Shown here piece by piece: positions 43,924 through 56,738 of a stretch of 64,000 bases of DNA. A program made the translations under genes and the position numbers. The DNA comes from Termitomyces sp. T153 (Eukaryota; Basidiomycota; Agaricomycetes; Agaricales; Lyophyllaceae). Location of the stretch: contig JACKQL020000117.1 in NCBI GenBank assembly GCA_018296165.2, forward strand, positions 62,001 to 126,000, written 5' to 3'. Within the stretch, counting starts at the first letter, position 1. Every line of letters begins with the position of its first letter. Under the pieces are notes generated by a model. The model searched no databases. It was not told the DNA's origin and saw nothing but the letters and a program-made list of their open reading frames with translations.

Positions 43924-44259
43924 TACAGTCAAACCTCTCATAACTGATGGCCCCTCTGTGGAAGCTAAAAAATATCAGTTATTAGGGAACCCAGTTTTAA
44001 CAGGGGTGGTTGTAGAGTCCCTTTTAATGCTTCTTTTTAGTATAAGTAGACATTATATACATCACTGCTAATGACTACTTGAATTTTTAGTGAAATATTC
44101 ATTGAGAGTAGTAGGCTGAAGAGACCAGAATTCCTCAAGGCATGTTTGGCACCCAAAACTTGCAAGAATACCTTCTAACTGGTGCATGTATTGCTGATCC
44201 ATATCAGACATGTACCTTAAGATAGTTGAAGCCACATTGAGTGCTTTCTGACATGATGG

Positions 44260-44510
44260 TATTATGATGGCACTTACCTTCTACAAAGAAGGAAAGGCTG
44301 TAAATACAGAGAAAAGTACTTACCTTAAAATACATACACCATTGTGCTGAAAACTGTAAGCATAATTAAGCCGAAAACTGTAGGCTTAAAAGGAAGTACT
44401 TACCATAGGCAAATATCAACAAAATCCCCAATGAACGGATGCCAGCAGCATTGAGTGAAGAAGAGATCAAGGAGGCCTCGACACATCAATGATCAAAATT
44501 GATCATTATT
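44260..44510 (+). repeat. 5' LTR of the Ty3 element, first part
   Basis: It matches 55400-55650 and ends GATCATTATT, where a 2-kb insertion begins. CpG sites in the ancestor are resolved in opposite ways in the two LTRs (TG here, CA there, or the reverse). Confidence 0.9.
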
Positions 44511-44867
44511 CCCGCTACTATGTAGTGGGTTTCTTGTAGCTCTATCAAAAAAAATCTCAAAGGTTGATTCAGATAAAAAGTCATGCTTTCTGGACCATTG
44601 ATCCGCCCGGCCCATTTCTTCCTGTGTGCTCATTGTTTTCCTTCAGTTTTCTTTTTGTCATTTCTATAATGCCCATTAGTCCGTGCTGTTTCTTGACCTG
44701 CAATGCACTGTTCAATAATTGCGCCTGTCTATCTTGTCAATTCCCTGTTTTGATCTCCTTATATGTTATGTCTTCTGTCTTGTCTGAGTATCACATGTGA
44801 TTTTATCTGTTGTTTCATATGCCCCTTTTCCCATGCGCATCTCCTTTGACTCAATTTTCTACTGCAA

Positions 44868-45660
44868 CAATGTCCATCTTTCCCCTACCTGCATGCTATT
44901 ATCCTTTGGCCTCAGAACCAATGTTATCCGATGTCCATTCTGTTTCTTTTTCTGATGGGAATCTGGTTTTGTTGGTTGGCAATTCAATATTCCGTATTCA
45001 CGCTTCTGTTTTTACCAGGCTATCTCCAGTCTTCAAGGACATGTGGCGTTCACGTCCCTTGCATGGAAATTGACGGACTCATAGCATCTGTATAATGAGC
45101 GAGGATCCTGTTGATTTTTATAATCTTATCAGGGCTATTTATTATCTCGATTCGTACATTCTTATTGTGTCTAGTGTTGTACATACATTGACTACTCTAG
45201 ATCTTTCTTGAGCTGCCAGCTGTTGCATGCAGATATCATCCATTCCTTGTTACACATGGGGGACAAATTTTCAATATCTGGGGTCTACACCACCATTGCT
45301 GGACACATTCATCATTGTTTCCTTTCCTTTCTACATAGTTTCGATTTATCCTATAATGAAATCGATACCACTCTAGCAGCCAATCCTGGTTTGGAGATCA
45401 ATCTCTTTGCACCCTGTTGTTTGTTTGGTCTTCAATCCTGTGTACCCGCACTGTTGTACCATATCTGTAAACATTATTTGTTGGTTTGTAACATTCAGTT
45501 TTCCTTTTTCAACCATCTTTTGATTCAGTCCAAGCATGAAATTCAGTCTGGCATCACCCGGGCAGATGGTTCAGTAGCACGTATGAACCCAGTTGACATC
45601 ATCCGAGTGTGTGTCGGCAGGCAGTGGTTATTGTCAGCCCAGACAGAGCATACATGGTCC
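44868..45660 (+). pseudogene. BTB/POZ domain protein fragment
   Basis: It starts at ATG 44868. The first exon gives SDGNLVLLVGNSIFRIHASV then FTRLSPVFKDMW, the opening of a BTB domain. After a frame change come EDPVDFYNLIRAIYYLD, IIHSLLHMGDKFSISGVYTT and later CVPALLYHICKHYL, matching the continuation of basidiomycete BTB proteins. Breaks may be introns or decay; stops within the later part suggest decay. In the family the domain mediates protein-protein contacts. It lies inside the LTR insertion, in the same orientation as the Ty3 element. Confidence 0.7.
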
Positions 45661-45781
45661 TGGCTGTTTAATTGGACTCCTGGCAGTCGTTGTTTACACC
45701 CTACCTCTTGTCTTGCTGCTCAAGATAAAATCGATTGCTCATATGTTTGGCTCCAGCTTTGCTCTATCACCTAAGGATTGA

Positions 45782-46583
45782 AAGTCAATGTTGATTCAGG
45801 ACTTCTTCGAGTCCGGACAAGTACACAATGTACTAATCATCTCCAGGTTTGTGATTGAATATGGCTACAAGTTCCTATAGAATTTTATTTGTCAATAAAG
45901 GTATAAGAATTCAAATGGAAGAAGGCTAACCCTACTGGCTGGTTGTACTCCAGTTGGCATGGTCTGGGTGACTTCAACAGGCACCCATTGCATACCATTC
46001 ATGACATTGTTTGAAATAGTATAACTAAGATGATTGGGTAGATCGAAAGGATCAGCTTTGTCCTTTTGACCAGTTTACTGAACTGACCTGGCTGGAACTG
46101 GTGTGAAGTAGTGTCAGCATGAATCGCTGGAATAATCAGCATGATTGAAAACATACTTGAATATATGGTATAAAACCTGTCCTTTCCCAGCCGATGTCAT
46201 ATAAGTGAGGGATCCATCAGTAGGAACTTGTCCAATAGGAGTCTGCCAATGATAGTCTCAGTGTTGGTTCATTAGCAGTTGGTAATACGGTGAGGTAGGT
46301 TAGTAGGGTGATGCAGCTCATTGCATGGTTAGATTTCTACTGGGATGATCTAGGAAGAGGAAGTGGTATGCAATGGGCTCGAACCTTTTACAGCCCTTGA
46401 CCCAGGGGGAGAACAAGAAACATTGAAGCACAAGGACCTCATAAGATCACTGTTCACAGAAGGATGCAGAGGTCTAAATATAAAGTGAAGCAGGGATCAG
46501 AGCAACATTTAACTACATTGTCTTGATTAATTCTGTAGTAGCAGGCTGTGCAGCCAATGAGGGTGCCCTTCACAGTTGAAATT
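45782..46583. other. Rest of the LTR insertion, no gene recognised
   Basis: 0.8 kb of mixed sequence with a few CpGs, following the BTB fragment. No coding or repeat signature was identified. Confidence 0.45.
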
Positions 46584-47225
46584 GACAGACAAGGATTGCT
46601 TGATGGGTGGCAGTGTCAGCTTGGGCCAGTTACTGCTTAAACCAATGCCAAGCTGGTCACACTGCTCTTCCTGCTCGACAAATGCCCCTACCTCCCTCAA
46701 ACATGCACATGAACAACCATTGATGGGTTCTACAGGAAGGAAGGAGGTTAGTGAAGAAACAGAGCAGGATAAAAGATGGAAAATGAGTGGGGAAATGGGG
46801 GCCACATCGGTGCCAAGCATGTAGAACTGAGAAAATTGTCAGCGTTGGGCACTGAACAGCTGGAATGATGACAGAGACATGCATGGGGCACTGTGGTCTG
46901 TGTGCATGAGGGCAGTATAAAGGGGAGGGGGGATTTTGAGAATGACAAGCAATGTTTGGCATGCAGCTCAGAATCCCCAGGGAGAGGATTACTTAGGCTC
47001 ATAATGTGAACTAGCTTCAATTAAGGTTTTGTTTGATAATTGAACCTCATTTGTTTGAACTTTTGTTTGAACTTATACTTAAATCAATTTAAATCAATAT
47101 ATTCTTACTACAATATAAAAGTTGTGTGATTCTGAGTGAATCTCAAGCCCTTGAACTTGTAAAGTTGTGGTTGTTTGGTTCAGTCTCTAAAGACAAACAA
47201 AACCAGATACTTCAATTTTGCATCA
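46584..47225 (+). repeat. 5' LTR of the Ty3 element, second part
   Basis: It matches 55651-56293. It ends ...TTTTGCATCA, directly followed by the primer-binding site TCTGGAGCCCACTGC. Confidence 0.9.
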
Positions 47226-47558
47226 TCTGGAGCCCACTGCAAGGGGTTCAATTACACTTTGAATACACACTTTTGGATCTCCTTTCTTGGAGTCCATTTC
47301 AGAGACTATATCATTAGTTTTGCTCCACCAGGCTCTTGGCCAGGTTCACCTAAGGTTATTACACCAAAGGTTAAAAACTTGAGAGTTTCTCCAGCAAGGA
47401 AACAAAACACTTGTGCTAATAGCAAGGGTGCAGAGTCTCATTTGCCTGATCCAGAAGCTCTACTACAAAAACAAAAGTTTTGTCTTCAGAAGGTAGAACA
47501 ATGTTCACAACCTTCAAACCAAAGCCCTATATCAGCACCTACTTTACCTGTTGTCACC

Positions 47559-48842
47559 AAAATGAGTGAAACTGTGAAGCAAAAGATGCCACTGTCTACA
47601 AGCAGTCATGCTCCAAAATTTGTGCATACACAGCCAAGTGAAGTCTTGTGCTTCCTGCAGAAAATGGAGACTCTGTTTGAACATGCTGGGATCACCTCTG
47701 CTAAAGAAAAGAAAAAGAGGATTGTGGAGTAGGTGGATGCAGTTACAGAAAAAGAGTGGAGGGGTTTTGATTTCTTTGAAGATGGCAAGTCTTGGGAAGA
47801 CTTTGTTAAAGAAATCAAGGATCTATACCCTGAAGCTGTAGACAATGTTGGGCAGGTTTCCTATCTTGATAGAATTTGCAGGGAACATGCAAGACTAAGT
47901 TGAAGCAATGTGGCTGAAATTCACTCCCTCATCAGGAAGTTCAAAGGAGAGGCAAAACTGCTGTCTAAGGTGCTCCATAATAGTACCCTAGTAACCAAAT
48001 TCATGCAGTGCTTTACCCCTACTTTTGCAGATGTCATTGAGGACAAACTTCTAAGCAAGTATGGCCATTTCAAAGATGCTGCTAGGAACAGACATGAGGA
48101 TGACCAATATGACCTCTCTGAAGTAATAGCAGTAGTGACAGCCCTGGTAGGCAGAAAGTCTTTGCATTCGGACAGAATAATCAGTGGGGACACAGAGACT
48201 GTGGGTACAAAAGAAAGGATTAAAGAAGAGGAATCAGAGGAAAAATTGGCCCACCTTCAAGATTCTATCTTGGAAATTGGTAAACAAGTCCAAGCAGTAC
48301 AATCAGGACAGGCAGAGTTGAAAACGGCCTTTCTGACTGCAAGGAATAATGTTAGAGTAGATGGGGCAGCTCCTGCTCTCCATTCCACTCTTGCTACATC
48401 CACTACAGGAGCAAACTGCTTTTACTGTTGGAAACCAGGACATAGGATTGCTGAGTGTGAACACTTGAAGTCACATATTCTAAAGGGATGGGTCATATTA
48501 ATAGAAGGGAGGCCTTGTCTCCCTAACAGGATGCCTGTGCCCAGAGACCCTTCCAACAAGTCTCCCTGTGAAAGAATCAATGCTCTCAATGACCAAGCCA
48601 TGAACTTGCTTTTTGGTTGAACAGAGGAAGAGCCTGCAGACAATCAAGTCTTTTCTACTTATGTGAATGCAGCTCATGATACCAGGGATGACTTGTTAGA
48701 AAAGATCAGTCAAAATGAGTCAGACAGGCTGGCTGAGGTAGAGAGGAGCCTAGCAAAAATGGGAGAGCTGATGTCAGTGTTAATAAACACTAGAAACACA
48801 GCAAACCCAACTGAAGGGCAACAGCCCAGCTCTAAGGATTTT
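47559..48842 (+). pseudogene. Ty3 gag
   Basis: It reads from MSETVKQK (47562) through EVLCFLQKMETLFEHAGI to a TAG at 47730. It continues with EKEWRGFDFFEDGKSWEDF and 47910-48620, and a zinc knuckle, CFYCWKPGHRIAEC (48418-48459, C-x2-C-x4-H-x4-C). A further frame (48663-48842) adds a coiled-coil-like ERSLAKMGELMSVL. Stops at about 47730, 47900 and 48620 break the frame. Confidence 0.8.
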
Positions 48843-48859
48843 TAGAGGGCTCAAGGAAG

Positions 48860-50118
48860 GTGCCAGGAAGAGAGACTACTTTACCAAGGGTACTTAAGGC
48901 ACCTGAGAGACCAGCTGAAAACTCTTGGAGAACAAAATCAACTCTGCCAGGGCAGAATGATGTTGAACCAAAATTTGGCTTACCTTTTGAAAAGGTACCA
49001 GCCCTCAATAGGGACAGGAGAAATCCAGTGCAGGCCACAGGAAAAGACCTTCCCCTTGTGAATAGAAAAGAGATAGAAAAGGCAATAGATAAAATATGGG
49101 GGACTGCTGTTCCACTAACAGCTGGGGAATTATGGGAGGTGGCACCTGACCTGAGAAATGCAATGGTACATAAGTTAACTAACAAGCAGACCTCAGGGTC
49201 TAAGCTTGCCAACTTTGGAGTACCTAGGGTAGCTGTCCAGGAACAGGTAGTCATGACAGAAGAGGAACCAAGTCATGTCAATGTTAATGACTTGCCAATG
49301 GCAGCTTATTTCATTGCTGATGGAACTCAACTAGGGTTGCCCCCAGGGGCAGTGGTGCATGAGGATTGTATTGCTACCTACTTGGAAAGTATTCCTCCAG
49401 ATAAGAAGCCAGTTGTAGTCTATGTAGCCAGAGACCTACAAGTTCTAAGATCCTTGAATCCTGTGGTTAACCACAAAGGAAGGGTGGAGACAATTTTAGA
49501 TAGTGGATCTCAAATAGTCTGCATGGCTTTAGCTGAAGCTTTGAGAGTAGGTTTGACTTGAGATCCTGATATAAGGCTGTGCATGAAGAGTGCAAATAAA
49601 CAGGTGAATGAGTCAGTGGGTTTGGCTCACAATGTGCCCTTCACCTTTGCAGAAGGATTTACTGTGTATCTGCAAGTTCATATCTTTGAGAAGCCTGCTT
49701 ATACTGTATTACTGGGCAGACCATTTGATATCTTGACAGAAAGCAATATCCAGAATCTGCAGGATGGTAGTGCTATCATTACCATTAGGGACCCAAACAC
49801 TGGAAGAAGGACAGCTTTGCCCACTATGGAGAGGGGGAAAGTGTCAAGGGAAAAGCCTAGTGGAGAAGAGGAGACAAAATTTTAAGTCTCAAGGATCTGG
49901 TCAATGATCAGGGAGAGATAGCAGTGAGTTTTGAAGAGACAGAGAATGGGGAAATAGTGCTTACTAGTTACACTGTTCAAAACAGTGGATTTAGTAAGCC
50001 TGAGTTAAGGAATGCATACTTGCAGGCCTTTGCTACTAGCAAAAGATGTGAAGGGAAGGATGAGAAAACACTGTCTGCTTATTTAAATGGACAGTTGGCA
50101 GAAATTCCTAGGGAGTAG
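48860..50118 (+). pseudogene. Ty3 protease region
   Basis: Frames 48860-49561, 49583-49885 and 49924-50118 continue one another. The aspartic protease active site is VETILDSGSQIV (49486-49521). The flap and end region read HIFEKPAYTVLLGRPFDILT, a retropepsin signature. The stop at 49559 is TGA followed by DPDIRL, where arginine (CGA) is likely. The protease would cut the Gag-Pol polyprotein. Confidence 0.78.
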
Positions 50119-50145
50119 GAGGGTTTCCTGCAGCAACAGGAGAAG

Positions 50146-51760
50146 TTGAGGTTAGAAGCAGGTGTGGGGGAGGCAGCCCAAGTATTTGGTAAATACAAAC
50201 CAGTAGCCAGAAAGGTGAAGCCAGTCTTGGGAACCTCTCCTGAGGAGTTTAGAATAGAGAGACATATTATTGGAGATCCTCTAGCAGATTTGCCAAAGTT
50301 GAGTACCAACCCACCAGAGTTTACACCAACTGGTAGATACACTGCAGAGAGTAAGGAAATCATTGATCAGGCTCATGATGATGATTTTCTATGGCCAGAA
50401 GAAAAGAAGTTAGTACATCATTTGATGATGTTGCAGAATGAGGCTTTTACATGGGATGATTCACAAAGAGGAAGACTCAAAGAAGAGTATTTTCCACCAG
50501 TGGTCATGCCTGTAATTCCACATACACCATGGGTATTAAAGAATATTCCAATTGCTCCAGGGCTCTGTGATAAAATCTGTAAAATGATAAAGCAGAAAAT
50601 TGAAGCAGGGGTCTATGAGCCATCAAATTCTTCATATCATTCTCAACGGTTCACTGTGCTAAAGAAAGATGGGGAAAGTCTTTGCATAGTACACAGTCTA
50701 GAACCTTTGAACAAAGTGACAATTGCTCACTCAGGTTTGCCACCAGCAACTGAGGAGTTGGCTAGTCATTTTGCTGGTTGTGCTTGTGGTGGGATCTTTG
50801 ATCTCTATGTTGGATATGATGAGAGGGTTCTGGATGTAAAATCTAGAGATTATACTACATTCCAGACTCCTTTTGGTGCTTTAAGATTGGTCACACTCCC
50901 TATGGGATGGACTAACTCTGTACCTATCTTTCATGATGATATTACATTCATTTTGAAGGATGAGATCCCCCATGTTTTTTGGCCATATATTGATGATGTG
51001 CCAATTAGGGGACCTCCAACTCGGTATGAGTTGCCAGATGGTGGATATGAAGTGATACCTGAAAATCCTGGTATTAGAAGATTTGTATGGGAACATATGC
51101 AGAATGTCAATCATGTACTCCAATAAATCAAACATGCAGGAGGTACCTTTTCAGGAAAGAAGGCAGTAGTTTGTGCAGATGAGATAGTGGTAGTTGGTCA
51201 TAGGTGTTCCTATCAAGGACAGAAACCAGAGACCAAGAGGTTGGCAATTGTGATGGGCTGGGGAGATTGTAGGGATAAGTCAGAGGTTAGATCATTCTTA
51301 GGTACTTGTGGTACTTTTAGGATGTTCATCAAAGACTATGCTAAGATAGCAGCCCCCATCAATTGTTTAACTCAGAACAATGTGCCTTTTGTATGGGGAG
51401 AAGAGCAGCATGCTGCTATGGCAAGTATGAAGAAGTTATTGGCTGAGAGTGCTCCCTTGAAACCCCTAGATTATGAGTCAGAAGGAGCAGTGGTGTTGTC
51501 AGTGGACACATCTTGGATGGCTATAGGATTTGGGATTTTCCAAGAGCATCCTACCAATCCAAAACAATGCACTTGTGCCAAGTTAGGCTCAATCACCTTG
51601 AATGAGCAAGAAGCAAGGTTCTCACAACCAAAATGAGAGTTGTATGGTTTAATGAGGGCATTGCAAGCTAACAAATATTGGCTGGTTGGCTGCAGAAAGT
51701 TGGTAGTGGAAACTGATGCCAAGTATTTGAAAGGGATGTTAAGTAAACAGGAGTAGGACC
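50146..51760 (+). pseudogene. Ty3 reverse transcriptase and RNase H
   Basis: RT: VVMPVIPHTPWVLKNIPIAP, KKDGESLCIVHSLEPLNKVT, LYVGYDERVLDVKSRDYTTF, LRLVTLPMGWTNSV and the intact catalytic WPYIDDVPIRG (50983-51015). Then come the thumb and RNase H, with LGTCGTFRMFIKDYA, VVLSVDTSWMAIGFGIFQ and LVVETDAKYLKGML. Stops fall at 51124-51126, 51634 and 51754. This is a Ty3 lineage distinct from the chromovirus at 5279, since the motifs differ strongly. Confidence 0.88.
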
Positions 51761-51773
51761 CAATGCTACTATC

Positions 51774-53778
51774 ATGAGGTGGATAGAAGATGTGTTGCTT
51801 TATCATTTTACCTTGAGGCATGTTCCTGAAAAGACTTTCAGTGTAGATGGTCTATCCAGAAGGATAAAACAGCCAGGGGATGAAGAGTATCAATTAGTCA
51901 ATCCAGAATTAATGGATGAACCAAAATCCATGAAGTTTGAGTACCCTGATAGAGATAATGGTGTTCCAGGATGGCAAAAGGAGGAGCCTTTAGAGCTTCA
52001 AGAGTTTGAGACTGAGATTGACACTAGAGGAGGGTACTTATGTGGAGTAGCTCAAGAAGTGTCAGATTTCACCCAGGAAGTGCACCAAGCACATTTGCAG
52101 GAACAAACCCTTAGGGAGGCTATAATAGGAAAGCTACAAGCTGACAAGCTGGATCCAGTAGCAGTCTTGTCTCTGGCCATGCCTTTGTTGCCTGCAGAAA
52201 GTCAAGAAGAGAGTAGGGAAGACACACAGACATATATGACACATTGAAAGGGGAGTGAGGGAGAAGACTGGGATAATTTGTTACCATTTGTTAAAACTTG
52301 GCTATGAAGTCGTGGGACTGAACCTATCAACCTGCCAGGATGTGAGCCAGAAAAGTCCAAGAAGTTTGCTAGGCAATTCTTCTTTGGCCAGGAAGGATGG
52401 TTGTATAAGCATAGCAATGGGGCAAAGCATAGGCTAGTAGTCAATATAGACTGTCATATGTTTATGCTCAAATCTGCACATGATGCTTTAGGACATTGAG
52501 GTGCTTATGCAACCAAGATGTTGATTCAGGAAAGATTTGGGTGGCCTGGATTGGATAGTGATGTACAATGGTATGTGGGGACTTGTCATAATTGTCAAAT
52601 TCATCAGAAGGCAGTGGTGAACAGGGAACCTACAGTCACCTATACACCTTCCATATTCTAAACCATTCATATTGATACAATGCACATGACACCAGCCTCA
52701 AATGGATGTAAATACATAGTTCATGAGTGATGTGCTTTGTCTTCATGGATGGAAGGGAGGCCTTTGAGAAAGGAGAATCATAAAACCATTGGACAATGGT
52801 TGTTTGAAGATGTAATCTGTTGTTGGGGATGTATTGCAGAAATTATCACAGATAATGCAGGACAATTCAAACAAGTTACAGCTTGGTTAGAAAAGAAGTA
52901 TGGGATCAGATGCATAACCATTTCACCTTACAAGTCTCCAGCTAATGGAAGAATTGAAAGACCACACTGGGTTGTCTGGCAAGCCCTATTCAAGGCCTGT
53001 GAAGATCGCACCAAGTGGTTTTGGTTCTTCTTCCATGTAATGTGGAGTGACTGCATTACTATACGCAAACAATTTGGGTGTTCACCATACTTCATGGTTA
53101 CAGGGGCCCATCCCATCATACCATTGGATTTAGCAGAGGCCACCTGGTTAGTAGAACTTCCAGAAGGCCCTCTATCTACAGAGGAATTGATTGGCTATCA
53201 GGCTTGGGCTCTGGCAAAACATTCTCAGCATGTAGAGGAAATGCAAGAATGAGTAGGAAAGGACAAGCTCAAATGGGCACTGAAGTTTGCAGAGGAACAT
53301 AAGTACTCTATCAAAGACTTCAAATTTAAACCATTAGATTTGGTCCTAGTAAAGAATATGGTAACTGAGAATTCACTTAGTGCAAAGATGCTCCCATGGC
53401 TTCATGGACCTATGGTAGTCCTTACAAGGACACAGGGAGGGAACTATGTGGTGGCAGAAATGGATGATATGGTTTGGCAGGAAAGAGTTGCAGCTTTTAG
53501 GGTTGTACCCTATTATGCTAGAAAGCAACTCAGTCTACCAGGAGGAATTGAAGAATGGATTGATATTGCACCTGCTAAACTAAAAGAATTACAGAAGGAA
53601 CAATGGAAGACAACTGAACTAAAGGACTAGGATATAATCTTTGGTTCAGTAAGACTTCATGAACCTTTGAATTTGGAGTTGGGGATAATGTCAGAAGAAG
53701 AATCAGAACAGGAAGAACCCCAGCTGGCAAAAAGAGTTAAGAAGCCAAGCTGGAAGGTTAGGGAAATGAACAAATCTT
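51774..53778 (+). pseudogene. Ty3 integrase and C-terminal part
   Basis: After a spacer (DVLLYHFTLRHVPEKTFSVD, then an acidic linker), the zinc-binding part reads SAHDALGH (52477-52500) and later CHNC (52589-52600). The catalytic core has HIDTMHM, EIITDNAGQF and SPANGRIERPHW, the D, D, E order. The end (53340-53640) resembles the GPY/F tail, with GPMVVLTRTQGGNYVVAE. No chromodomain is seen. The stop in YIVHE*CALSSW fits a lost arginine (CGA). Confidence 0.85.
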
Positions 53779-53942
53779 GAGATGGAACTTTAAAAAGTTA
53801 TAAATAAAATAAACTTAGAGTTCACACAAAAAAATTTGGGCAAAGGACATTATATTGGGGTACATGACAGTAAAGGAAAGGGGATTTTATATATATCTAC
53901 CACATACAGAGGCAACAAAAGTGCCTACAGTGGGGGGGTCTT

Positions 53943-55293
53943 TTATATGGAGACAGCAGTGCTACTGGGAACATCCTGGGGGGGATCTGAGAGCTCAATA
54001 TCAGAATCAGAGTCCGCTGCCTCAGGTTCTAGTCAGGGAAGGATGAAAATAGCAAGAAGCATGATTGGATGTACCTCAGGAGAAACCTGAAGCTCAGTGA
54101 AGAGATTGCCAGTCTGGTCCACTTTGGAAGGGCCCAAGACTCTGTCAAGACATTGAAGACAAGCTGAAATAAGCTTGAATGTCTGAAGCAAAAGGTCAAG
54201 GGCATAAAGCCATTGCTGGGTGGCCAGATTGACAGCATCACAATGCTTTTGTAAGTTGGTGTGAGAAACAGAGGTGTCATCCTCAGTGAGGACCATGGCA
54301 TCAAGGGCTGCGTCAACTTGGGAAAGCAAAGCCAATGCAGCTTTGCTACCCACCTTGTAACTTGCTAAAGTAAAAAGAATAAACAAAAGTTTAATGAAGG
54401 AAGGTTTGAGAAGAACATACTGGCTGAAGGGAGTACCTTAATCTTCTTGGCATGAGGCTTGCCCTCAGAATCAGCCTGGATGGGGGTATGAGAAACGGTT
54501 AAGTTGTCTAGATGACAAGCCAGTAGATCAAGTTTAGAAGCTGCAACTTACATTAGCTTGGCACTTGTAAGTATGAGGGGCCGATGGACCTATCATCTTG
54601 ATGTCAGTATCCTTGGCACAATGGCAAAGCTATCAAAAGCCCAGCAGACATAAACAAAGTGAAAAGGGAGAAAAGAAAGAAGCTTACTTCTTGGAGCTCC
54701 TTTTGGTGAGCATCATGACAATGGCCTTCAATGGTGATGATGGCATCAGCAAAAGTAAAGAATGATTTAGTGGGGGCAGAATTTTTGCCAACAGACCAAT
54801 CCAGAATATTTGACTTGATGAGAGCAGAAAGGGTGTCGAACAAGCCCTGCTGCTCAGCAATCTGGGGGAAGTCCACCTAGTCAGCAAAAGTCTGAGAAAA
54901 AGTAAGCAAGTGCAAGGATGAAAGAGAAAGAAAGAAAGAAGGCTCACCAGGTTTACTGCGCTAATGAAGCATGTACGGTCAGCCACGCCAAGTGGGAGAG
55001 CTTTGGTGGCAGAAATACAGCCCATAAGAGCACTGGCAAGAGCAGGATAGTGAAGTACTGCCACTATAATGTCACTGGCAGAGCGCTTGACCAAGTGATT
55101 GAACAATGTGACATGGTCAGGAGGCTCTGAAGGTGCAGTCAGTGAAACAGCAGCTGCATGAGGTACGGTGGGTGTTTTGTGGAAAGGAGAAGTGGGAGGC
55201 ATGAGGATGGGGAAGGAAAACAAGAGAATGGTCTTATAAGACCAGAGAGGCAAGATCAAAGTCAAAATTTGTGAGGCAGAGCAGCTGAGACAT
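53943..55293 (-). pseudogene. Antisense spliced gene of unknown function within the Ty3 element
   Basis: I do not recognise the protein. On the minus strand five or more coding segments join through canonical GT-AG introns in one frame. A first exon ends at 54948 (...VADRTCFISAVNL); intron 54947-54877; exon 54876-54688 (VDFPQIAEQQGLFDTLSALI ... KELQE); intron 54687-54630; exon from 54629 (LCHCAKDTDIKMIG ... YKCQAN); a short exon, ADSEGKPHAKKIK; and a last exon with VDAALDAMVLTEDDTSVSH and an acidic Ser/Asp tail. One stop in the last exon (TGA, FILP*LEPEAAD) fits CGA to TGA. The start may be 55293 or 55265. It lies between the pol end and the polypurine tract. Apart from that stop it is far less broken than pol. 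Confidence 0.6.
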
Positions 55294-55399
55294 GAAAAAA
55301 AAAATTTTTTTCCAAATGTATGCTCTGGGGTGAAAAAGTTTTTGATTGAACTATGCTAAGACATGCTGACTGAGGGCAGTCAGTAAAGTGTGGGGGAGG

Positions 55400-56293
55400 T
55401 ATTATGATGGCACTTACCTTCTACAAAGAAGGAAAGGCCATAAATACAGAGAAAAGTACTTACCTTAAAATACATACACCATTGTGCTGAAAACTGTAAG
55501 CATAATTAAGCCGAAAACTGTAGGCTTAAAAGGAAGTACCTACCGTAGGCAAATATCAACAAAATCCCCAACAAATGGATGCCAGCAGCATCAAGCAAAG
55601 AAGAGATCAAGGAGGCCTCGACATGTTAATGATCAAAATTGATCATTATTGACAGCTGAGGATTGCTTGATGGGTGGCAGTGTCAACTCAGGCCAGTTAC
55701 TGCTTAAACCAATGCCAAGCTGGTCACACTGCCCTTCCCACTCAACAAATGCCCCTACCTCCCTCAAACATGCACATGAACAACCATTGATGGGTTCTAC
55801 AGGAAGGAAGGAGGTTAGTGAAGAAACAGAGCAGGATAAAAGATGGAAAATGAGTGGGGAAATGGGGGCCACATCGGTGCCAAGCATGTAGAACTGAGAA
55901 AATTGTCAGCGTTGGGCACTGAACAGCTGGAATGATGACAGAGACATGCATGGGGCACTGTGGTCTGTGTGCATGAGGGCAGTATAAAGGGGAGGGGGGA
56001 TTTTGAGAATGACAAGCAATGTTTGGCATGCAGCTCAGAATCCCCAGGGAGAGGATTACTTAGGCTCATAATGTGAACTAGCTTCAATTAAGGTTTTGTT
56101 TGATAATTGAACCTCATTTGTTTGAACTTTTGTTTGAACTTATACTTAAATCAATTTAAATCAATATATTCTTACTACAATATAAAAGTTGTGTGATTCT
56201 GAGTGAATCTCAAGCCCTTGAACTTGTAAAGTTGTGGTTGTTTGGTTCAGTCTCTAAAGACAAACAAAAACCAAATACTTCAATTTCACATCA
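55400..56293 (+). repeat. 3' LTR of the Ty3 element (894 bp)
   Basis: Intact copy, starting TATTATGATGGC right after a purine run and ending TTTCACATCA. It lacks the usual TG start. The flank ATGG follows. Confidence 0.85.
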
Positions 56294-56738
56294 ATGGCTT
56301 CACACAAGAGAATACGTCTGAGGATTCCAACTGCAAATTTACAGAAATGAACCATGGGAAATATGATGTTGGGCTCTGTGCATGTGCAGAATCTGACATC
56401 AGCATCATAGCCATTATCAAAGTCACATAACCTTAAACAGGAAATCCATCATTGTATCTTTTTTTTCTGAATTTGCCATTAAAATTACAACAGTATATCA
56501 ATAATACAATGATTCTTCCATCATATACCATATACTTAAGAGAAACTGATTAATTATAATGAAAATCTTTACTTTTTGGGCAAATTATTGGTTATGACCC
56601 TTCCTGGGACCCATTACATATCAGGTATTGGAAGGTTATCAAATTTCCCTGCAAACCAAGTTAGTAGATGCCAAAAACCCATTGGATTGAAGGGATTATT
56701 GGTTACAAGGGCCATTGGTTATGAGAGGTTTGACTGTA

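What the first reader, a model, noticed from the sequence alone, without database searches (positions are those of the whole stretch)
53943..55293. A spliced antisense gene between pol and the 3' LTR of a Ty3 element
On the strand opposite to gag-pol, at least five exon-like segments connect through canonical GT-AG introns in one frame. The resulting protein has no family I know, ends in an acidic tail, and is far less broken than pol in the same element (one in-frame stop, explained by CGA to TGA). It lies between the end of pol and the polypurine tract, the place where some plant Ty3 elements carry extra or antisense genes. I know of no well-described fungal case. It could be an element-encoded accessory gene or a captured host gene.
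Basis: partly seen in the sequence, partly recalled or inferred. Interest (0 to 1): 0.8.

Follow-up and report, generated by a model that had tools for sequence, protein, structure and literature searches.

The report
Spliced antisense gene in mushroom retrotransposons
Retrotransposons in the genome of a termite-farmed mushroom carry an extra gene, cut by five introns and written backwards near one end, whose fast-changing protein is kept in many copies but has been lost from some young families that still spread.

Summary
The window lies in a Termitomyces-like genome. On the strand opposite gag-pol, between the pol stop and the polypurine tract, is a six-exon gene (53943-55202) with GT-AG introns of 54-76 nt.

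Eleven near-full copies of the segment show codon-position constraint: columns with a transversion are 13%, 8% and 28% at positions 1, 2 and 3, and 42% in introns. Relatives with only 44% and 29% protein identity keep the same six exons and phases, including a 55-nt exon 4. Of 113 exon-5 loci, 96 face an integrase, all convergently; 17 have none in the capped lists. All named homologues are from Termitomyces.

A distant Ty3 clade holds an unrelated spliced antisense gene in the same slot (19 of 19 loci). Two different deletions of the gene body have amplified, some beside full-length open pol frames, so the gene is dispensable in cis.

Best reading: an element-encoded, trans-acting nuclear accessory protein, comparable to maize Grande gene23. 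A fungal precedent exists (Botrytis Boty brtn), so this is a new variant of a known kind. RNA evidence is missing.

The parts
44260..47225 (+). 5' LTR of the Ty3 element, interrupted by an insertion of about 2.07 kb (about 44511-46580)
   Evidence: direct repeats with 3' LTR; LTR pieces 94.5% and 97.8% identical; ends read from the sequence
47301..53780 (+). gag-pol, decayed: a path of 13 open pieces with at least 12 interruptions; YIDD at 50986-50997 (motif recalled), RNase H-like stretch, integrase
   Evidence: integrase identity through relative L030
53848..53895 (-). candidate 3'-end signals of the antisense transcript (AATATAATG; TATATATAAAAT), in a conserved stretch downstream of the stop; signal type recalled
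   Evidence: transversion rate of the 3' stretch 4.2%
53943..54020 (-). exon 6: acidic tail AADSDSDIELSDPP..., stop TAA
   Evidence: similar tails in proteins
54021..54074 (-). intron 5 (54 nt)
   Evidence: GT-AG in 9 of 12 copies
54075..54364 (-). exon 5 (290 nt)
   Evidence: 290 nt in L030, 281 nt in L031
54365..54420 (-). intron 4 (56 nt)
   Evidence: GT-AG in 11 of 12 copies
54421..54475 (-). exon 4 (55 nt; phase 1 exit), basic KPHAKKIKV; in model B it extends to 54540 (120 nt)
   Evidence: exactly 55 nt also in L030 and L031
54476..54551 (-). intron 3, model A (76 nt; GT-AG in 5 of 13 copies); model B is 54541-54589 (49 nt; donor GT 13 of 13, acceptor AG 12 of 13)
54552..54629 (-). exon 3 (model A 78 nt; model B 54590-54629, 40 nt)
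54630..54687 (-). intron 2 (58 nt)
   Evidence: GT-AG in 13 of 14 copies
54688..54891 (-). exon 2 (204 nt); in-frame TAG at 54879-54877; alternative acceptor 15 nt downstream
54892..54947 (-). intron 1 (56 nt)
   Evidence: GT-AG in 14 of 15 copies
54948..55202 (-). exon 1 (255 nt), ATG at 55202
55230..55243 (-). TATA-like element (GGTCTTATAAGACC) about 30-40 nt before the ATG; TATAA at a like distance in L029 and L030 (read by eye)
55367..55382 (.). palindrome between antisense promoter region and polypurine tract, shared with a Ty3 clade whose antisense protein is unrelated
   Evidence: 256 in the genome, 0 for the reversed control; positions
55390..55399 (+). polypurine tract
   Evidence: read from the sequence
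55400..56293 (+). 3' LTR
   Evidence: ends read from the sequence

Best explanation
A Ty3 lineage of Termitomyces carries, between pol and the polypurine tract and on the opposite strand, its own accessory gene. Shown: six exons, conserved phases, coding constraint, a fixed place and orientation in about a hundred loci, and loss of the gene body in subfamilies that still amplified. Inferred: (1) transcription starts at the TATA element just inside the 3' LTR, so the mRNA is made from integrated DNA only; (2) the introns persist because genomic RNA is sense and cannot be spliced at antisense sites; (3) the protein of about 320 aa (helical N-terminal domain, basic stretch such as KRKAN...KKVKV, acidic tail) enters the nucleus; (4) it acts in trans on transcription or chromatin of the family, so deleted copies can use protein from complete copies. 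The direction (activator or anti-silencer, or a brake on copy number) is open; I lean to an anti-silencing or activating factor, because the gene is held by selection across subfamilies while its protein differs about twice as much as integrase does.
For: Codon-position constraint. Same six-exon architecture in the window, L030 and L031, with protein identities of 44% (E 3e-74) and 29% (E 2.7e-28) against 73% and 65% for the integrase C-terminus. L030 is free of stops in all six exons. 96 of 113 exon-5 loci are convergent with integrase, none in another orientation, and 17 have no integrase in the capped lists. Of 150 integrase loci scored, 79 of the 128 with 72% or more identity have a window-type match within 6 kb downstream, all antisense; of the 12 best L031-type loci (of 22 rows) 10 are convergent with an integrase and 2 lie near contig starts. 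Five of five fetched gene-less copies of the L031 family share one junction next to the pol stop, and L046 shows it too. Three L039-type copies carry a different deletion.
Against: No RNA or protein evidence was available. No convincing Pfam match or Foldseek match gives a function. Nuclear entry rests on basic stretches only. Deletion subfamilies show that the gene is not needed in cis, which also fits a gene that does nothing useful for the element at present. 17 of 113 loci were not tied to an integrase, and 49 of the 128 integrase loci at 72% or more had no window-type match (some have L031-type genes, some are deletions, some end at contig ends, some are unresolved).
Confidence: 0.6

Rival explanations
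1. The protein is a self-limiting factor (copy-number brake), in the manner of Ty1 p22 (recalled), and losing it frees a subfamily to spread.
For: Two different deletions of the gene body have amplified; one ends within a few bases of the pol stop, and 3 of its 5 first-fetched copies (C1:39459, C44:43774, C120:15698) keep a 1262-codon open frame through integrase.
Against: Complete L031-type copies are about as numerous (7 at 92% or more of exon-5 identity) as the deletion copies found (6). A brake would not obviously be kept by selection over subfamilies.
Confidence: 0.22
2. The protein serves the particle or the pre-integration complex (nuclear import, integration site choice) rather than gene expression.
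For: Basic stretches and acidic tail recur; trans-complementation of deletion copies would also work for a particle protein.
Against: An mRNA that can arise only from integrated DNA on the antisense strand is an unusual source for a particle protein (inference); no Foldseek match supports it.
Confidence: 0.15
3. Only the antisense RNA matters (dsRNA or siRNA production); the reading frame is incidental.
For: Antisense transcription can feed silencing, as discussed for plant elements in PMC7264820; the palindrome and a TATA element are kept even in copies without the gene body.
Against: Codon-position constraint and the same six exons and phases in families with 29% protein identity.
Confidence: 0.05
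4. A recently captured host gene with its introns.
For: Intron-rich structure is host-like; 17 of 113 exon-5 loci have no integrase in the capped lists.
Against: No locus stands out as a single-copy host parent; all named hits in the protein collection are hypothetical proteins of Termitomyces.
Confidence: 0.05
5. Chance open frames in an old element.
For: The window copy is old and has a stop; 10 of 11 near-full copies carry at least one stop or frame-breaking indel.
Confidence: 0.01

Closest known systems
[quoted passage not shown] 2011; only its title and mentions in other papers seen)
   Same: Fungal LTR retrotransposon with an additional antisense gene between pol and 3' LTR (title)
   Different: Ascomycete; sequence and intron content of brtn not seen here, homology not tested
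Maize Grande gene23 / rice RIRE2 aORF-3R
   Same: Antisense, between pol and 3' LTR, present in most copies; gene23 is nuclear and has its own promoter (PMC7264820)
   Different: Plant elements; homology to their proteins not tested; introns of gene23 not mentioned in what I read
Retand antisense ORF with TRP28 domain
   Same: 97% of clusters have an antisense TRP28 ORF in the same slot (PMC11963269, passages including the abstract)
   Different: TRP28 (PF04195) is not among the families matched by the 37 homologues scanned
HTLV-1 HBZ (details recalled; named as nuclear in PMC11963269)
   Same: Antisense gene near the 3' LTR encoding a nuclear regulator; spliced form recalled
   Different: No bZIP match; here the candidate promoter is internal, not in the LTR; six exons

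Membership tests
Antisense additional gene between pol and 3' LTR (aORF-3R class) | antisense to gag-pol, between pol and 3' LTR | tested here: met
Antisense additional gene between pol and 3' LTR (aORF-3R class) | present in many copies, conserved as coding sequence | tested here: met
Antisense additional gene between pol and 3' LTR (aORF-3R class) | transcribed from its own promoter | not testable with these tools
   TATA element seen only
Antisense additional gene between pol and 3' LTR (aORF-3R class) | nuclear protein (as Grande gene23) | not testable with these tools
   basic stretches only
Retand TRP28 proteins | Pfam PF04195 domain | tested here: not met
   not among the 17 families matched by the 37 members of A3 at E up to 10
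Boty brtn | homologous protein sequence | not tested
   brtn sequence not at hand
HBZ-type antisense factors | bZIP domain | tested here: not met
   no bZIP family matched
HBZ-type antisense factors | antisense promoter in the 3' LTR | tested here: inconclusive
   a TATA element lies between the 3' LTR and the ATG; transcription start unknown
Ty3 retrotransposons (Metaviridae) | RNase H before integrase in pol, LTRs, polypurine tract | tested here: met
   RNase H-like at 51394-51621, 21.8 bits, below the Pfam cut-off of 29.8; window integrase pieces had no Pfam match themselves, integrase H2C2 and PFV integrase similarity in relative L030, which is 87% identical to the window piece; LTRs

The most novel reading that the evidence does not exclude
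The antisense slot next to the 3' LTR of agaric Ty3 elements is a long-lived site for fast-evolving nuclear factors under conflict with the host. It was filled by at least two unrelated spliced genes, both near a shared palindrome, and the window's gene makes two proteins by mutually exclusive splicing at exon 3/4. The factors act in trans, so deletion subfamilies repeatedly arise as cheats.
Probability: 0.3. Interest if true: 0.85.

Novelty: new variant of a known kind. Interest (0 to 1): 0.62.

Why it matters
Antisense extra genes of LTR retrotransposons have been described for several plant elements and for an ascomycete element, with unknown function. Here an intron-rich form is conserved across many subfamilies of one genome. 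It comes with complete young copies and with natural deletion subfamilies that serve as ready-made controls, so the question whether such a gene drives, protects or restrains its element becomes directly testable. Many public 'hypothetical proteins' of Termitomyces are probably this gene or its CxxC counterpart and should be re-annotated as belonging to retrotransposons.

Tried and rejected
Single exon 3/4 model: both placements of intron 3 were kept. Model A has GT-AG in 5 of 13 copies; model B has GT in 13 and AG in 12 of 13; public models use both. Protein-level similarity of the model B segment between divergent families is weak (shuffle p 0.0045, 0.32 and 0.066) and of the model A segment mixed (0 of 2000, 0.107, 0.0155); at DNA level intron 3 is not clearly more alike than the other introns (z 2.0, 0.8, -0.3). 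Alternative splicing is therefore a lead, not a result.

'Far less broken than pol': rejected. L042 and L044: no gene match and no palindrome, unresolved. L045 may be a further deletion (palindrome close to the pol end, no gene match). L032, L043 and L047 end at contig ends.

Literature: the listings showed no title or abstract start that reports such a gene in a basidiomycete Ty3 element. Only open-licence papers are held, and all but three papers were seen as listings only.

Full report
WHERE IT IS. The window is C117:62001-126000 of an unnamed 72.4 Mb genome. All named homologues are from Termitomyces (18 of 18, 46 of 46, 62 of 62; candidate lists were capped). One J132 protein matches the 569-codon gene of L033 at 100% over 71% of its length. 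The host is therefore Termitomyces or very close to it (inference). The element has a 5' LTR at 44260-47225, split by an insertion of about 2.07 kb, a decayed gag-pol, a polypurine tract at 55390-55399 and a 3' LTR at 55400-56293. The LTR pieces are 94.5% and 97.8% identical. Pol has an RNase H-like stretch before the integrase region (below the Pfam cut-off); the integrase is confirmed through relative L030.

THE GENE. On the minus strand, six exons join through GT-AG introns of 54-76 nt into 319 codons with one TAG. A TATA-like element lies about 30-40 nt before the ATG, and 3'-end-like motifs follow the stop. The TAG sits near the start of exon 2 and is skipped if a second AG 15 nt downstream is used, as some public models do (P0003, P0006, P0010).

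IS IT CODING? The DNA search found 38 matches in the genome. Sixteen copies of the segment, the window's own (L009) among them, were aligned; four of the 20 fetched loci were left out of the alignment: L013, L017 and L022, whose matches are split, and L024, which is short. Over all pairs of 14 of the 16 (L025 and L027 dropped), transversions are 4.3%, 2.1% and 10.3% at codon positions 1, 2 and 3, 10.0% in introns and 11.2% upstream. With alignment columns as units and 11 near-full copies (L020 and L025-L028 dropped), 42, 27 and 88 of 320 columns vary by transversion at positions 1, 2 and 3, against 79 of 188 columns of introns 1, 2, 4 and 5 (p = 1.5e-10 and 5.7e-20). Six divergent copies alone give 37, 24 and 83 of 320. 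Exon 1 differs by 0 or 3 nt in 13 of 13 copies. Against this, older copies carry frame-breaking indels in exon 2 (2 of 14), exon 4 (2 of 13), exon 5 (5 of 12) and exon 6 (3 of 12), and 10 of 11 near-full copies have at least one stop or such indel, as dead copies should.

HOW FAR IT REACHES. A tblastn with exons 1-2 gave 143 matches and with exon 5 gave 113. Of the 113, 96 have an integrase within 6 kb facing them, 0 have another orientation to the nearest one, and 17 have none. For this I used all 150 listed rows (150 of 420 candidates scored) and 15 of the 150 rows (150 of 518 scored). Seen from integrase, 64 of 88 loci at 79% identity or more, 15 of 40 at 72-78%, 0 of 3 at 60-70% and 0 of 19 at 45-46% have a window-type match within 6 kb downstream (with the exon-5 rows and a selection of the exon 1-2 rows). 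One pair had another arrangement; ties that locus to a nearer integrase. L030 (integrase 87%) has six exons without a stop (339 codons with the final stop in model A, 348 in model B). L031, from a family with a 1262-codon open frame and equal integrase scores in many copies, has the same six exons; its exon 4 is 55 nt, as in the window and in L030. The L031 copy read has one stop in exon 1; 6 of 7 copies matched at that site do not have it. Protein identity to the window is 44% for L030 and 29% for L031, while the integrase C-terminus is 73% and 65% identical: in uncorrected differences the antisense protein changes about twice as much.

THE SAME SLOT IN ANOTHER CLADE. Elements with integrase only 45-46% identical carry a different antisense gene in the same place: L033, six exons, 568 aa, a cysteine cluster (CDNCW...PCYRC), basic stretches and acidic runs. 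19 of 19 such integrase loci have its cysteine-cluster exon about 1.6 kb downstream, antisense (using 32 of the 150 rows). It shows no homology to the window's protein, and its one Pfam match is far below cut-off.

NATURAL DELETIONS. Five of five copies fetched from the L031 family without a gene match (L034-L038) share one 1.63 kb deletion that lies next to the pol stop and leaves the first 50 nt of exon 1. Three of these have a 1262-codon open frame through integrase, the other two 1071 and 1106. L046, 97.9% identical to L034, shows the same junction (read by eye). Three copies of another subfamily (L039-L041; open frames 1281, 1022 and 391) keep a TATA region, what look like the first codons, and the 3' end, but lack the gene body (the first two read by eye); L040 and L041 are 98.9% and 96.6% identical to L039. 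The gene is therefore not needed in cis. This fits a factor that acts in trans; it fits a brake, or a gene of little present use, as well.

THE PALINDROME. TGACTGYCCTCAGTCA occurs 256 times in the genome, against 0 for the reversed control. It lies between the polypurine tract and the antisense gene in L009, L030, L031 and L033, with one changed base in L029, and it is unchanged in 11 of the 12 window-family copies shown. Since it is shared by clades with unrelated antisense proteins, I read it as a host-factor site or an element of reverse transcription, not as the protein's own target (inference).

THE PROTEIN. Pfam: no family for the window protein at E up to 5; only scattered weak matches among 37 homologues. 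A predicted N-terminal helical domain is confident (blocks of 93-98 pLDDT from residue 41 to 170 of P0014), but Foldseek finds no solved or viral structure at E below 0.001. Basic stretches and an acidic C-terminus recur.

EXON 3/4. Two introns are possible. Form A ends exon 3 in a basic stretch (KRKAN in L030); form B drops it and reads a leucine-rich segment. Both stay in frame in the window, L030 and L031, and public models use both, but sequence similarity of the B segment is weak. In some families the whole stretch is read through in public models (P0030, P0033). Alternative splicing is a lead only.

COMPARISON. [quoted passage not shown] PMC11963269, passages; PMC8365987, passages). New here, as far as nine search listings show, are the basidiomycete host, five introns, two unrelated genes in one slot, and amplified deletion subfamilies.

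LIMITS. There is no RNA evidence. The copies are related, so the pairwise rates are not independent; the column test and the six-copy subset reduce but do not remove this. Counts from capped searches are lower bounds.

Noticed in passing
window 44511-46580: An insertion of about 2.07 kb splits the 5' LTR; its nature was not worked out.
   Followed up: no
L033 760-2767 (C26) and 19 of 19 integrase loci of the 45-46% clade: A second, unrelated spliced antisense gene with a cysteine cluster occupies the same slot in another Ty3 clade; 150 matches scored of 251 candidates in the genome.
   Followed up: partly
L034-L038, L046; L039-L041: Two different amplified deletions remove the antisense gene body and leave pol.
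   Followed up: partly
window 55367-55382 and 256 sites genome-wide: A 16-nt palindrome marks the stretch next to the polypurine tract of Ty3 elements from different clades.
   Followed up: partly
window 54421-54629: Two alternative, mutually exclusive introns between exons 3 and 4, both in frame in divergent families.
   Followed up: partly
alignment: Many differences between old copies are C/T or G/A changes at TG or CA dinucleotides, as expected from decay of methylated CG; judged by eye, not counted.
   Followed up: no
window 44256-44259 and 56294-56297: ATGG flanks both LTRs and may be a target-site duplication of 4 nt; read from the sequence only.
   Followed up: no
P0001-P0111: Many public Termitomyces 'hypothetical proteins' appear to be retrotransposon accessory genes.
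   Followed up: partly
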